Shown: positions 18,845 through 38,131 of the stretch, one piece after another
How positions within the stretch are numbered: the stretch's first letter is position 1
Layout: every line of letters begins with the position of its first letter
From: Methanosarcina sp. KYL-1
GTDB taxonomy: Archaea; Halobacteriota; Methanosarcinia; Methanosarcinales; Methanosarcinaceae
Assembly: GCF_024372725.1 (NCBI RefSeq)
Contig: NZ_VOUA01000012.1
Span: 1-64,000, forward strand
Direction: 5' to 3'
Length of the DNA stretch: 64,000 bases
The notes under the pieces: generated by a model
Databases searched by the model: none
Seen by the model: the letters and a program-made list of their open reading frames with translations, nothing else
What the model was told of the DNA's origin: nothing
Translations under genes and position numbers: made by a program

Positions 18845-19275
18845 ATCGGGGAAAACCATAAGCAAGGAAGGAAATGGCGGTAAAACATAATCCCGGAGCC
18901 AGGTTCACAGGGGCTGTAAATCCTCCCGGAAATGCCCGGAGATTATACTGAAGTAAAACACCATCTCCTGAATGTGAAACTGAGGGAGGTTATCATGCGC
19001 AGGAGACTTATACGGAGGTAAAATACGGAGGTAAAGCAACATACACGGGGGGAAACGCAGGTAAGACACCATAAACAAGAGATGGAAATGGATGTAAAAA
19101 AATAGGAGTAAACAAATGAATTTAATATAATCTACTATAATATACTGTAATATCTTGTATTATAAATTACAAAATAATTACCCTGTCAGAAAGGGGCTTT
19201 AAGGGTAATTTATTGATCGATCGGTCGGCAGTTGAGCCGGCAGGTTACACCTTTTAAAACCTGGGGGGATCTTGT
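18845..19275. other. Intergenic with ribosome-binding-site-like repeats and AT-rich promoter
   Basis: It contains repeated TACGGAGGTAAA motifs around 19010-19040 without an attached gene, an AT-rich segment 19115-19175 with several TATA-like sites, and the inverted repeat described separately. No gene is supported. Confidence 0.5.
19176..19210. promoter_or_regulatory. 9-bp inverted repeat before the CstB-like gene
   Basis: AATTACCCT (19176-19184) and AGGGTAATT (19202-19210) are perfect inverted arms with a 17-nt spacer. It lies ~65 bp before the start codon and just right of TATA-like TATAAATTA near 19161. It could be an operator or a hairpin in the leader. Confidence 0.5.
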
Positions 19276-20700
19276 ATGTTAGTACAGCAATTTTTCGTAA
19301 AAGGCATAGCGCACAGTTCTTACATCCTGGCCGGGAAAGAAAGATGTGCAGTCATTGACCCGCGCAGGGATACCGACATTTATGTCGACGCGGCAAAGGC
19401 TCTGGGTGTGAAAATTACCCACATTCTGGAGACACACCTGCATGCCGATTTTATCTCCGGGCATATTGACCTTGCCGAAGCTACCGGGGCAAAGATTTAC
19501 GCTCCTAAGTCCGGGAACTGCGAGTTCGAACATGTGGGGCTGGCTGAAGGAGACAACTTCGAAATCGAGGATATGGCCGTAAGGGTGCTGGAAACACCGG
19601 GGCACACGCCTGAACACATCTCCTACGTTGTCTCGGACACTTCCAGGGGGCCCGACCCTGTGGCCCTCTTTTGCGGGGACACGCTTTTCGTGGGAGACGT
19701 GGGAAGGCCCGACCTTTTCCCGGGACAGGCGGAGGAACTGGCATCCAAACTTTACGATAGCCTCCACTCCAAACTGCTCTCCCTTCCCGATTCATGTGAG
19801 GTCTACCCCGCCCACGGGGCAGGGTCGCTTTGCGGGAGGGCTATGGGGGCCAAGCGTTCGAGCACCATCGGGTATGAGCGCAAGTACAACTACGCCCTGA
19901 AAATTCCCGAGAAGGAACAGTTCATAGAGGCTCTAACTACCGATATGCCCCCTGCCCCTGACCATTTCTCCCGCTGCAGCAACGTGAACCGGGAGGGGCC
20001 GGCAAAGCTAAAAACCCTCTCTCCTGTCAGGGAAATTCCTCCCTCTGAATTTTTTGCACTTGCGGGGCGGACCGATACGCTTGTCCTTGATACCCGCTGT
20101 TACGAGGGTTTCGGGGGGGGACATGGGCCCGGCTCCTACAGCATCGACCTGGGCGGCAATTTCGGGACTTTTGCAGGCTGGCTTCTGCCTCCTGACCGGC
20201 AGGTCCTGCTGGTCTCGGACAGTGAGGCCCATGCCAGGGAAGCCGTGGTCTGGCTGCACAGGGTCGGGCTTGATAATGTTCTCGGCTACCTTGAAGGCGG
20301 GATGTTTGCCTGGGTGACAGGAGGTCTCCGGGCTGCGCATGTGCCCCAACTTTCGATTCCCGAACTCCATGCCAGGGCCCGGGAGGATGCCCCACTGGTA
20401 ATCCTTGACGTACGGGCTCCTTCCGAGTACGAAAGCTTCCACATCGAACACGCTCTCAACATCCCGGTCCAGGAACTTCGGACGCGCTACCCCGAACTCG
20501 ACCCTGATGCTGAAACCGTACTCATCTGCAGCACGGGGCACAGGTCGAGCATGGGTTGCAGCATTCTGAAACAGCACGGGTTCACCAGGGTGTACAATGC
20601 TGCAGGAGGGATGACCGGGTACAATGCTGCCGGTTACGGGCCAGAATGCCCCATGTGCTCCCTTTCCTGGGCCGGAAAGGCTGGCCGGAAGAATGCTTGA
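19276..20700 (+). CDS. CstB-like MBL-fold protein with two rhodanese domains (putative persulfide-handling enzyme)
   Basis: A 474-residue three-domain protein. Residues 1-235 are a metallo-beta-lactamase fold of the persulfide-dioxygenase/glyoxalase-II group: ETHLHADFISGH, ETPGHTPEH, CGDTLFVGDVGRPD and YPAHGAG supply the metal ligands. Residues ~255-350 are a rhodanese domain whose loop (VSDSEAHARE) lacks the catalytic Cys; residues ~365-465 are a second rhodanese with active Cys in CSTGHRSS. The order MBL-rhodanese-rhodanese equals bacterial CstB, which turns persulfides into thiosulfate. Two YeeE/YedE transporters follow, supporting a sulfane-sulfur role. CstB needs oxygen, so its use in a strict anaerobe is unclear. 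The start is ATG 19276 after GGGGGGATCTT. Confidence 0.85.
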   Translation: MLVQQFFVKGIAHSSYILAGKERCAVIDPRRDTDIYVDAAKALGVKITHILETHLHADFISGHIDLAEATGAKIYAPKSGNCEFEHVGLAEGDNFEIEDMAVRVLETPGHTPEHISYVVSDTSRGPDPVALFCGDTLFVGDVGRPDLFPGQAEELASKLYDSLHSKLLSLPDSCEVYPAHGAGSLCGRAMGAKRSSTIGYERKYNYALKIPEKEQFIEALTTDMPPAPDHFSRCSNVNREGPAKLKTLSPVREIPPSEFFALAGRTDTLVLDTRCYEGFGGGHGPGSYSIDLGGNFGTFAGWLLPPDRQVLLVSDSEAHAREAVVWLHRVGLDNVLGYLEGGMFAWVTGGLRAAHVPQLSIPELHARAREDAPLVILDVRAPSEYESFHIEHALNIPVQELRTRYPELDPDAETVLICSTGHRSSMGCSILKQHGFTRVYNAAGGMTGYNAAGYGPECPMCSLSWAGKAGRKNA

Positions 20701-22589: not shown

Positions 22590-22918
22590 AGCATCCGGCA
22601 TCGGAACACTTAGACCTTCTACTTCACCGTTTTCCCGAAGTATCCCGTTTATTCTGAAAGACCGGGCAGAAAGCTCTGCATGTTTTAAGATTTGTAGATG
22701 TGCCCTCTTTCCAGCCCCTCTTTATTTATTTAGATGGGCTTGAGGACCTGTACGTTTGTTCGGAAAGCTTTTGAAAATGTTTGAATATACTTTTGGTCGG
22801 GAAGCCTGTGAGTATACTTTTGGCTGGAAAGTCTTGGCTGGGAAGTGGGATCTCTGTCCGTTCCTCTGTCCGTTCCGGAATTTTTCCACATTTTGGGTAT
22901 TTGTTCTGGATATTTTGT
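22590..22918. other. Intergenic, no gene seen
   Basis: It has short near-duplicated segments (GAATATACTTTTGG near 22785 and GAGTATACTTTTGG near 22810). Open frames here run into the minisatellite and are not called. Confidence 0.4.
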
Positions 22919-23064
22919 TCTGGTTTTTCCTGTTCTGGGTTTTCCTGTTCTGGGTTTTCCTGTTCTGGGTTTTCCTGTTCTGGGTTTTCCTGTTCTGGGT
23001 TTTCCTGTTCTGGGTTTTCCTGTTCTGGGTTTTCCTGTTCTGGGTTTTCCTGTTCTGGGTTTTC
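22919..23064. repeat. 15-bp minisatellite, about nine copies
   Basis: The unit TGTTCTGGGTTTTCC is repeated head to tail about nine times, with degenerate copies at both ends. Because the unit is a multiple of three, open frames run through it in several frames on both strands (e.g. repeats of GKPRT on the minus strand, FWVFL on the plus strand), but no start site or family supports coding. Confidence 0.9.
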
Positions 23065-23355
23065 TGTTCTGGGCGTTTTGTTCTGGAGATTTCATTTTGG
23101 ATATTTCACATTCGCTCCGAAGATTTCTTTCTCCGGTCCGGATAAATGGTCAGCACTTTGAATACCAGCAGTATGATAGTTATATTTAGATAAACAAACA
23201 ATTATATTTATCTGGACATTCAGGTAGAGCCGGAAGGAAAAGGTGAAATCTTTTTCCTGATAGGCAGGTATTGTGGGGAATAGTAACAACTTATATAAAC
23301 CGTGGGGTAGGTAGCCCATTTTAGTTTTATTTAACTCAAGAGGAAGGTTGAAGGG

Positions 23356-28170: not shown

Positions 28171-28314
28171 AAGCAAAACATGGAGTCTTACGGAATCACG
28201 TTTCTCGTAAGGATATTTACAGAACAAATGTTTCCGATTACGGAAAATTTCAAGACACTTTTAGGAAGGAAAATAGGGGTTTAAAAAAGCGCAGATTCTT
28301 AAAGGAAATATTAT

Positions 28315-28419
28315 GTGAACGGGTAAAACCCTGTTGTGGTCTTGTTTGATGGTAGTTGTCTGTTCGTCTTGTTGGGAGTGATCTTGTAGATGTAGGTTTA
28401 AGAGGGTAGGCCCGTTCAC
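28315..28419 (-). ncRNA. Putative small RNA with terminal stem and G-poor loop (diverged copy A)
   Basis: On the minus strand GTGAACGGG (28419-28411) and CCCGTTCAC (28323-28315) pair perfectly and enclose ~87 nt that is A/C-rich and poor in G. TATTTATA (28460-28453, minus) lies 33 nt upstream. The layout is that of the three copies near 37-38 kb, with a compensatory G-A / T-C change in the stem (GTGAGC/GCTCAC versus GTGAAC/GTTCAC). Confidence 0.55.
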
Positions 28420-28452
28420 TATGCACTAATCAACAAAACTCCTGATTAAGTA

Positions 28453-28460
28453 TATAAATA
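28453..28460 (-). promoter_or_regulatory. TATA box of putative small RNA copy A
   Basis: TATTTATA on the minus strand, preceded by CCTAA. It is 33 nt before the first stem base, about 10 nt more than in copies B-D, so the RNA may have a short 5' extension. Confidence 0.4.
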
Positions 28461-28659
28461 TTAGGATAAAATTATATTAAATTGCCTTTTTGTCCTATTT
28501 TTATGCTGGCTTTAGTGGTTCAAAAAGGACTTTTTTCCGGGTTTTGCCATCTTATTTTTAGGAAAGAAATCCATGTTATCAATTAACTGCTTTCTTCCAC
28601 GTTTTCCGGTTGATTTTTTTTCTTTGCGGTATTATGCTGGCAGGCTTTTCTTTTTCCTC

Positions 28660-28905
28660 TTTTTAACACCTTTCTTCTCCCTTTTCTTCTCCTTCCTTCT
28701 ACTTCCTTCTACTTCCTTCTACTTCCTTCTACTTCCTCCTACTTCCTTCTCCTTTCTTCTCCATCCTTCTACTTCCTCCTCCTCCCTTCTCCTTTCTTCT
28801 CCTTTCTTCTACTTCCTTCCCCTTCCTTCTCCTCTTCCTTTCCTTTTTTCTCCTCTCTTTTTCTTTTTCCCTTTTCTTCCTCCTTTTTTCTCTCCTCTTT
28901 TCGTC
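28660..28905. repeat. Pyrimidine-only repeat tract upstream of ilvD
   Basis: It consists of variants of CTTCTACTTCCTTCTCC on the plus strand with hardly any purines other than A. It ends about 70 bp before ilvD. The rest of the 28461-28972 gap is AT-rich and holds no gene. Confidence 0.8.
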
Positions 28906-28972: not shown

Positions 28973-30634
28973 ATGAGAAGTGCCATTATCAAAGAGGGGC
29001 CCGAGCGTGCCCCCAACCGCTCCCTCCTGAAAGCTACCGGGGTCACGGATTCCGAGATGAAGAAGCCGTTCATCGCGGTGGTCAATTCCTGGAATGACAT
29101 AATCCCGGGTCACATCCATCTTGACAAACTTGCTGAGGCTGTGAAAGCAGGGATCAGGAATGCCGGTGGGGTGCCCTTCGAGTTCCATACCATCGGGGTC
29201 TGCGACGGGATCGCAATGGGGCATGAGGGCATGAAATACTCCCTCCCAAGCCGTGAGGTCATAGAAGATACTATCGAGCTTATGGTTAGAGCCCACCAGT
29301 TTGACGGTATGGTCCTGATTCCAACTTGCGACAAGATCGTGCCCGGGCACCTCATGGCTGCGGGCAGGCTTGACATTCCTTCAATTGTTGTGACCGGGGG
29401 GCCCATGCTTCCGGGTTATGTGGACGACCAGTACACGGACCTTATTTCCGTCTTCGAAGGGGTCGGGGCCTACAGGGCAGGCAAGATGTCCGAAGCCGAG
29501 CTCAAAAGGCTTGAAGACCTCTCCTGCGCAGGGGCAGGGTCCTGTGCCGGGATGTTTACGGCAAACACCATGGCCTGCATGACCGAAGCCCTGGGGCTGA
29601 GCCTTCCGGGCTGTGCCACAGCTCACGCCGTGGACGCAAAGAAGATGCGCCTTGCAAAGGAGTCAGGGGAGCGCATCGTGCAGCTCGTAAAAGAAAACAT
29701 CACCCCCAGGAAACTCGTGACCCTGAAGTCCTTTGAAAACGCCATTATGGTGGATATGGCGGTAGGGGGCAGCACAAATACCACCCTTCACCTCCCGGCC
29801 CTTGCCCACGAGTTCGGGCTCGAACTCCCCCTTGAGGCTTTTGACAAACTGAGCAGGACAACCCCCCACCTGATTTCCCTCCGCCCTGGCGGCCCGAATT
29901 TTATGCTCCACTTCGACCGGGCAGGCGGGGTCCAGGCAGTCCTCCAGCGGCTGGCTCCAAAACTCAACCTGGACGAGCTGACTGTGAACGGGAAGACCAT
30001 CGGGGAGAACCTGGAAGAATATGAAATCGTTAACCCGAAGCTCAATGCGGAAATCATCACGACCCTGGAAAACCCGAAACATGTCGAAGGCGGGATTGCA
30101 GTGCTCAAAGGCACCCTTGCCCCTGACGGCTCGGTTGTGAAGCAGGCTGCAGTGGACCCGAAAATGCACGTCCACACCGGCCCTGCCCGGGTCTACGACT
30201 GTGAGGAAGATGCCATGCAGAGTATCCTTGCAGGCGATGTGAAGCCCGGAGACATTGTAGTCATCCGCTATGAAGGCCCGAAAGGAGGCCCCGGAATGCG
30301 GGAGATGCTCGCAGCCACTGCCGCAATAGGAGGTATGGGCCTGCTCTCTTCCGTTGCCCTGATCACTGACGGCCGTTTCTCGGGCGGGACCCGAGGGCCC
30401 TGCATCGGGCACGTCTCCCCCGAAGCCAGTGAAGGCGGACCTATCGCCCTTGTGAAGGAAGGCGACCTGATCGAAATAGACATCTCTAAGAGGGCCCTGA
30501 ACCTTAAGGTTTCTGAAGAGGAACTCGAGAAGAGAAGGGCAGCCTTCGTGCCCCCGAAAAAGGAAGTCACCGGCTACCTGGCCCGCTACCAGCGCGCCGT
30601 GCACTCCGCAAATACCGGTGGAATAGTGGACTGA
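28973..30634 (+). CDS. ilvD: Dihydroxy-acid dehydratase
   Basis: A 553-residue enzyme converting 2,3-dihydroxyisovalerate and 2,3-dihydroxy-3-methylvalerate to the 2-keto acids for valine and isoleucine. Cluster- and metal-binding signatures are present: [49 protein letters not shown], and near the C-terminus [21 protein letters not shown]. The length is normal for the archaeal and bacterial IlvD. ATG 28973 follows AAGGAGATTCACA, a near-perfect ribosome binding site. A hairpin with T-run follows. Cytoplasmic, monocistronic here; other branched-chain genes are not in the window. Confidence 0.97.
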
Positions 30635-36985: not shown

Positions 36986-37063
36986 GTGAGCGAGTCTGGG
37001 GGTTGACTTAAAAGAAGAAGTTTTGGGGATGTTCTTGGGAAGTGGGGGTATGGACCCGCTCAC
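36986..37063 (-). ncRNA. Putative small RNA with terminal stem and C-rich loop (copy B)
   Basis: On the minus strand GTGAGCGGGTC (37063-37053) pairs with GACTCGCTCAC (36996-36986), ten of eleven positions. The 56-nt loop contains CCCCC twice and CCCC once and only two G. A TATA box 24 nt upstream places the expected RNA 5' end at or next to the first stem base. Confidence 0.65.
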
Positions 37064-37330: not shown

Positions 37331-37422
37331 GTGAGCGGGTTGGAGTGTTTTTGGGAATATTTGGGGGAATAGTTGGGGGATATGAGTTTGGGGGGTTATA
37401 CTTTGAAAAGAGACCCGCTCAC
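37331..37422 (-). ncRNA. Putative small RNA with terminal stem and C-rich loop (copy C)
   Basis: On the minus strand GTGAGCGGGT (37422-37413) and ACCCGCTCAC (37340-37331) form a perfect 10-bp stem around a 72-nt loop. The loop has three CCCCC(C) tracts and two CCC tracts spaced by A/T-rich bases and a single G. CTTCTTTTC follows the stem and could end transcription. TATA box 23 nt upstream. Confidence 0.7.
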
Positions 37423-38057: not shown

Positions 38058-38131
38058 GTGAGCGGGTTGGGGAGTATGAATTGGGGGTGTTGGGGGGTTG
38101 GGGTTATCTTACAAAATAGAGACCCGCTCAC
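38058..38131 (-). ncRNA. Putative small RNA with terminal stem and C-rich loop (copy D)
   Basis: On the minus strand GTGAGCGGGT (38131-38122) and ACCCGCTCAC (38067-38058) form a perfect 10-bp stem around a 54-nt loop that contains CCCC, CCCCCC, CCCCC and CCCC and only two G. TATA box 23 nt upstream. It is the shortest copy. Confidence 0.7.

What the first reader, a model, noticed from the sequence alone, without database searches (positions are those of the whole stretch)
28315..28460. Diverged fourth member of the stem/C-rich-loop family with compensatory stem changes
Nine kilobases away, GTGAACGGG / CCCGTTCAC enclose a longer A/C-rich loop with a minus-strand TATTTATA upstream. Relative to the other copies a G-C pair has become A-T on both arms, so pairing is kept while the sequence changed. 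That is the kind of change expected under selection for an RNA stem. The TATA distance is 33 nt, so the 5' end may differ.
Basis: partly seen in the sequence, partly recalled or inferred. Interest (0 to 1): 0.7.

Follow-up and report, generated by a model that had tools for sequence, protein, structure and literature searches.

The report
Clamp-stem antisense small RNA, Methanosarcina
The hairpin is one of six related small RNAs conserved across methane-producing Methanosarcina, each holding open a loop shaped like the mirror image of a messenger RNA start site; a sister copy matches the start of the methanol-use gene mtaC perfectly, but this copy's own target was not found.

Summary
Confirmed: a perfect 9-bp stem (28315-28323/28411-28419) closes an 87-nt A/C-rich, minus-strand loop with a TATA box upstream. 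Locus A lies in the same place beside ilvD, 8-13 kb from the C copy, across the genus, and belongs to a family of about six hairpins per genome (A-F) found in 45 of 111 Methanosarcinaceae genomes (reversed-pattern control: 0). The covariation claim is weaker than stated. The G-C to A-T swap is one fixed difference separating A and E from B, C, D and F. Within 24 A orthologues the outer stem has no compensatory change: 7 of 9 pairs never vary and pair 9 is broken in six. The arms are constrained in sequence, not just in pairing. Most loops carry an anti-start codon (CAU) just before an anti-Shine-Dalgarno run. Sibling E is complementary over 22-24 nt to the mtaC ribosome-binding site and start codon in about 25 genomes. 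Best reading: A is a trans-acting antisense RNA masking a translation start with its conserved block CAUCUACAAGAUCAC. Its target was not found: nothing stood out in 51% of the genome, and the best candidate failed a co-variation test. No Rfam family matches. Expression and function are untested.

The parts
28315..28419 (-). Hairpin RNA 'A', 105 nt: 9-bp clamp stem closing an 87-nt A/C-rich loop
   Evidence: orthologues in 26 of 30 genus genomes
28411..28419 (-). 5' arm GTGAACGGG
   Evidence: first eight bases invariant in 24 orthologues
28315..28323 (-). 3' arm CCCGTTCAC
28375..28392 (-). Most conserved loop block CATCTACAAGATCACTCC: anti-start CAU plus GAUCAC, identical to part of the 16S 3' end (anti-Shine-Dalgarno); proposed pairing site
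   Evidence: UACAAGAUCAC invariant in 24 of 24; block lies in all three reading frames
28451..28462 (-). TATA-box region AATATTTATATA
   Evidence: TATA box upstream in 24 of 24 distinct A upstreams
28283..28288 (-). Candidate U-tract terminator TTTTTT downstream of the stem
   Evidence: T fraction 0.53 in the 40 nt after the stem against 0.30 for the loci overall. Inferred.
28973..30634 (+). ilvD-like dihydroxy-acid dehydratase gene, divergent conserved neighbour
   Evidence: N-terminus found at a similar distance in 21 of 26 A loci
36986..37063 (-). Family member B
37331..37422 (-). Family member C
38058..38131 (-). Family member D

Best explanation
Locus A encodes a small non-coding RNA of roughly 110 nt, transcribed from the minus strand. 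A short clamp stem of fixed sequence closes it and protects both ends, while the long A/C-rich loop stays single-stranded and exposes a conserved antisense block (CAUCUACAAGAUCAC) that mimics the complement of a translation start site (Shine-Dalgarno GUGAUC, spacer, AUG). By pairing in trans it would hide the ribosome-binding site and start codon of one or a few mRNAs. Shown: hairpin, conservation, synteny, promoter signal, non-coding nature of the block, family membership, and that sibling E is perfectly antisense to mtaC. Inferred: transcription ends, stability role of the clamp, a common protein partner, and repression by A. Unknown: A's target.
For: Genus-wide syntenic conservation. Invariant UACAAGAUCAC loop block, lying in all three reading frames, so constrained as RNA or DNA and not as protein. 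TATA box upstream in 24 of 24. Minus strand z -3.1 with an open loop. Family pattern in 45 of 111 genomes, control 0. Anti-start followed by an anti-SD run in 20 of 24 A loops against 2.5 expected by shuffling, and in 21 of 21 E loops against 0.7. Sibling E: 22-24 nt antisense to the mtaC RBS and start in about 25 genomes; duplex -37.9 kcal/mol against shuffled minima of -20 to -24, with a second mtaC paralogue at -27.2. Published M. mazei sRNAs work by masking RBSs (PMC3510493, PMC6560208).
Against: No target found for A: an 18-mer search with up to 2 mismatches found essentially only the A loci themselves. The 12-mer core occurs exactly only at A in the genomes with listed results. No start site in 2.05 Mb (51%) of the genome clearly beat shuffled cores. 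The best candidate, GGGAGTGATC before an FrhB-like gene, is fixed by the upstream gene's coding end in all genera read and does not change with A. The anti-start/anti-SD test was devised after seeing the loops, and for B the signal is weak. No transcript data were available.
Confidence: 0.6

Rival explanations
1. The RNA works mainly by binding a protein: the invariant arm sequence and repeated open motifs recruit an RNA-binding protein, and the RNA titrates it (as CsrB titrates CsrA) without antisense targets.
For: Seven of nine stem pairs never vary among the A members and nearly all are shared by the whole family, more than pairing requires. C and F loops hold tandem C-rich motifs that can expand (G028 C copy, 160 nt). 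No antisense target found for A.
Against: E has a long conserved antisense match to mtaC. Loops differ between members in the way exchangeable guides would, and A lacks the C-runs.
Confidence: 0.2
2. A cis element only: the hairpin is a DNA site, a terminator, or a leader for a neighbouring gene.
For: It sits in an intergenic region beside ilvD in most genomes.
Against: It has its own TATA box at constrained spacing. Six copies sit at unrelated loci with the same orientation logic. The loop block is conserved, not only the stem.
Confidence: 0.08
3. A small leaderless ORF starting at the stem's GTG (VNGPALDHIYKITP...).
For: A GTG-initiated frame is open over part or all of the hairpin in many species. 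M. mazei sRNA154 is reported to carry a leaderless small ORF (PMC11456600).
Against: The conserved block falls in frame 1, 0 and 2 in 15, 7 and 2 species, stops interrupt several, and the frame-shifted peptides share little beyond the first few residues.
Confidence: 0.05
4. A mobile inverted-repeat element (MITE) with 9-bp terminal repeats.
For: Short perfect terminal inverted repeats, several copies per genome.
Against: About six copies at fixed syntenic places across a genus, diverged interiors, conserved promoters, no target-site duplications apparent in the flanks read.
Confidence: 0.02

Closest known systems
Methanosarcina mazei trans-acting sRNAs (sRNA162, sRNA154, sRNA41)
   Same: Intergenic RNAs of Methanosarcina; reported to mask ribosome-binding sites and start codons of target mRNAs (PMC3510493, PMC5867862, PMC6560208)
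   Different: sRNA162 is 191 nt with three stem-loops and a 39-nt linker, whereas A is a single long-loop clamp hairpin. Sequences of sRNA154 and sRNA41 were not available to compare, so identity of an A-F member with one of them is not excluded. Start sites on the ACDS-bearing contigs of this genome ranked poorly for A-F.
Bacterial C-rich-loop sRNAs (e.g. Xanthomonas sX13; seen by title and abstract only)
   Same: C-rich open loops are expected to pair with G-rich ribosome-binding sites
   Different: No sequence relationship tested or expected; different domain of life; A's loop uses GAUCAC, not C-runs
CsrB/RsmZ-type protein-sequestering RNAs (from memory)
   Same: Repeated open motifs and a shared stem could serve a protein
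   Different: No such partner known here; E shows clear antisense design

Membership tests
The window's stem/open-loop family (A-F) | GTGARCGGG/CCCGYTCAC clamp stem | tested here: met
The window's stem/open-loop family (A-F) | TATA box about 28-39 nt upstream on the A/C-rich strand | tested here: met
The window's stem/open-loop family (A-F) | Conserved position across the genus | tested here: met
   A and C 8-13 kb apart in the genomes where both lie on one contig; ilvD beside A in 21 of 26
The window's stem/open-loop family (A-F) | C-rich loop with C-runs | tested here: not met
   A and E loops are A/C-rich with GAUCAC or CCUCC instead of long C-runs, so C-runs are a trait of some members, not of the family
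Structured RNA supported by covariation | Compensatory changes in the outer stem among orthologues | tested here: not met
   0 of 9 outer pairs; one inner pair (columns 15-118) changes on both sides in 8 sequences but follows the clades and is weak (7 of 500 shuffles reach the covariation score, 294 of 500 the pair count)
Methanosarcina RBS-masking sRNA | Antisense match to a target ribosome-binding site | tested here: inconclusive
   Met for sibling E with mtaC; no target found for A in 51% of the genome
Methanosarcina RBS-masking sRNA | Discrete transcript | not testable with these tools
   No RNA-seq held
sRNA162 | 191 nt, three stem-loops | tested here: not met
   Single clamp hairpin against the published structure
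Any Rfam 15 family | Covariance-model match at the gathering score | tested here: not met
Small protein gene | Conserved reading frame | tested here: not met

The most novel reading that the evidence does not exclude
Methanosarcinaceae carry a modular RNA-guide family: one fixed clamp stem, probably read by a common protein, with exchangeable loops each resembling the complement of a translation start site, giving several dedicated mRNA silencers (E for methanol genes, A for a still unknown GUGAUC-type start) that evolved from a single F-like ancestor.
Probability: 0.4. Interest if true: 0.8.

Novelty: new variant of a known kind. Interest (0 to 1): 0.58.

Why it matters
Few archaeal small RNAs have known targets, and no Rfam family covers these. 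A conserved RNA that is perfectly antisense to mtaC would tie control of methanol use, a main route to biological methane, to a defined and easily deleted regulator. Reading locus A together with its sisters gives a concrete rule (clamp stem plus anti-start loop) by which the targets of the remaining copies can be sought.

Tried and rejected
(1) Rfam at gathering and relaxed thresholds: nothing. (2) Target search for A by 18-mer with up to 2 mismatches and 12-mer with up to 1 mismatch across 30 genomes: no start-site hit. (3) BLAST-level partial hits to A's loop are inside coding regions such as a RavA-like ATPase: treated as chance. (4) Duplex scan of 7,287 candidate start sites in 2.05 Mb: best A hit -26.1 kcal/mol, not better than shuffled cores; its orthologues do not vary with A, rejected. 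A second candidate inside the window (MBL-fold gene at 19275, GGGGGGATCTTGTATG, -23.8) is not above chance and was not tested further. (5) Start sites on the contigs bearing the ACDS operon as targets of A-F: ranks poor; the operon is cut by contig ends, so only a partial test. (6) Statistical covariation in the outer stem: absent. (7) Coding and mobile-element readings rejected. (8) The primary M. mazei transcriptome and sRNA154 papers are not held.

Full report
What is there. The window is from the genus Methanosarcina (named relatives carrying locus A include M. spelaei and other Methanosarcina isolates). At 28315-28419 the arms GTGAACGGG and CCCGTTCAC are exact and enclose 87 nt that are A/C-rich on the minus strand. 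The minus-strand RNA folds at -20.3 kcal/mol with the outer stem, a short inner helix and a mostly open loop (z -3.1).

The family. A gapped pattern of the two arms finds six hairpins in this genome: A (28315), B (36986), C (37331), D (38058) in the window, E on contig 18 and F on contig 37. It hits 28 of 30 genus genomes and 45 of 111 Methanosarcinaceae genomes in 7 of 14 genera, with zero hits of the reversed control pattern in every genome. Distant genera that match keep a single copy, and the ones listed (g11 to g13) are F-like, which suggests F is the oldest. A-type copies also occur outside the genus: G033, G034 (genus g4) and G036 (g5) keep CAAGATCAC in the loop.

Locus A. BLAST finds A in 26 of 30 genus genomes. 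It lies 8-13 kb from C in the genomes where both are on one contig, with ilvD divergent beside it in 21 of 26 (the rest truncated or not caught by the regular expression). In 24 distinct orthologues the eight outer bases of the 5' arm and the loop string UACAAGAUCAC never change. That block begins in reading frame 1, 0 or 2 relative to the stem in 15, 7 and 2 species, and stops interrupt several, so it is not conserved as protein. All 24 upstreams have a TATA box, mostly 36-37 nt before the stem, against 28-30 in C and D and 27-32 in E. By the usual archaeal spacing (established knowledge) B, C, D and most E copies would start at about the stem's first base, and A and F about 7 nt earlier, within the conserved GCATA. 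Downstream of the stem the strand is T-rich (0.53 against 0.30 overall), compatible with U-tract termination.

The covariation claim. Pair 5 is A-T in all 24 A and 21 E sequences and G-C in all B, C, D and F sequences; pair 9 is A-T in 5 of 6 B sequences. These are real compensatory differences between members but few events. Within A the outer stem has no pair changed on both sides, pair 1 wobbles in two sequences, and pair 9 is broken in six. One inner pair changes on both sides in 8 sequences, but this follows the two clades, and the count of such pairs is matched by 294 of 500 shuffles; the alternative register gives no more. So the outer stem is best described as invariant. That argues for a sequence reader (a protein or a processing enzyme) in addition to pairing. 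This is inference.

What the loops look like. In E, query positions 98-121 match a second place in nearly every genus genome, mostly 23-24 nt without mismatch. That place is the ribosome-binding site and start of mtaC, the methanol corrinoid protein: GGAGGTTAAAATATGTTGGATT followed by MLDLKLEDIDGILVRYNVALEKEMT (named from my knowledge of the MtaC sequence, no library search was run on it). In a scan of 7,287 candidate start sites in 2.05 Mb of this genome E's duplex with mtaC is -37.9 kcal/mol, a second mtaC paralogue -27.2, and a RamA-like corrinoid activator -22.1, with shuffled cores reaching -22 to -24 (-20 to -22). Thus E is antisense to the start site of the methanol genes. Seen in this light, A's conserved block is CAU (complement of AUG) followed by GAUCAC, the same string as in the archaeal 16S 3' end (established knowledge) and hence complementary to Shine-Dalgarno GUGAUC. 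An anti-start followed by an anti-SD run occurs in 20 of 24 A loops (2.5 expected), 21 of 21 E (0.7), 23 of 23 C (10), 13 of 16 D (4.3), 10 of 10 F (4.3) and 3 of 6 B (1.4). The definition was made after seeing the loops and the sequences are related, so these numbers describe and do not test.

Target of A. None was found. Near-exact 18-mer matches are essentially only the A loci; exact 12-mers likewise in the genomes whose results were listed; the 40 one-mismatch sites read in two genomes give no convincing start site. In the duplex scan the best A site is GGGAGTGATCAGAGATG before an FrhB-like subunit of a glutamate-synthase-like operon (-26.1; shuffled -23.9 and -26.3; operon read). It is in the right register, but GGGAGTGATC is set by the coding end of the upstream gene in all genera read, while most A loops carry GAUCACACCC; it does not change with A. 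It is therefore not supported. Half the genome was not scanned, and short or bulged targets would be missed.

Known or not. No Rfam family matches A-F or their relatives. The closest known things are the M. mazei sRNAs 162, 154 and 41, reported to mask ribosome-binding sites. sRNA162 differs in architecture. sRNA41 and sRNA154 sequences were not in the library; sRNA41 is reported to act on ACDS operons, and the start sites on this genome's ACDS-bearing contigs rank poorly for A-F (operon partly cut). The primary M. mazei transcriptome paper is not held, so A-F may well have been seen there as unnamed intergenic RNAs; I cannot tell.

Verdict. The finding's stated reason, compensatory stem change, is the weaker half; the strong half is the conserved antisense-like loop and the E-mtaC match. 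I rate A a new, probable antisense RNA gene with unknown target.

Noticed in passing
L006:1501-1585 (G000 contig 18, 50446-50530, minus): Sibling E carries a 22-24 nt perfect antisense match to the ribosome-binding site and start of mtaC in about 25 Methanosarcina genomes, plus weaker matches to a second mtaC paralogue and a RamA-like corrinoid activator. A ready candidate regulator of methanol use.
   Followed up: yes
L007:1501-1573 (G000 contig 37, 7242-7314, plus): Sibling F is almost letter-for-letter identical across the genus, loop included, and is the type kept as a single copy in distant genera of the family.
   Followed up: partly
L088 (G028 contig 1, near 22000): The C copy has grown to 160 nt by tandem units of CCCCCAACTATT/CCCCCAACATT, showing that the loop can expand by repeat amplification.
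   Followed up: no
L277:1501-1596: Genus g4 has an extra member whose loop carries AACAAGATCGGAATG, not seen in Methanosarcina.
   Followed up: no
window 38058-38131 and L203 (minus strand, offset 12803): D's loop CCAATTCATACTCCCC resembles the complement of a superoxide dismutase start site GGGGAGGATGAATATGG (-21.3 kcal/mol, not above shuffles).
   Followed up: no
window 28690-28900: Long pyrimidine tract of repeated CTTCTACTTC-like units on the plus strand just upstream of ilvD.
   Followed up: no
window 19247-19290: Start site GGGGGGATCTTGTATG of an MBL-fold gene shares GATCTTGTA with the complement of A's block; a chance match is likely.
   Followed up: no
window 22730-23189: Tandem repeats of a short unit (repeating GFPVL/FWVFL in the reading frames) between two genes.
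   Followed up: no
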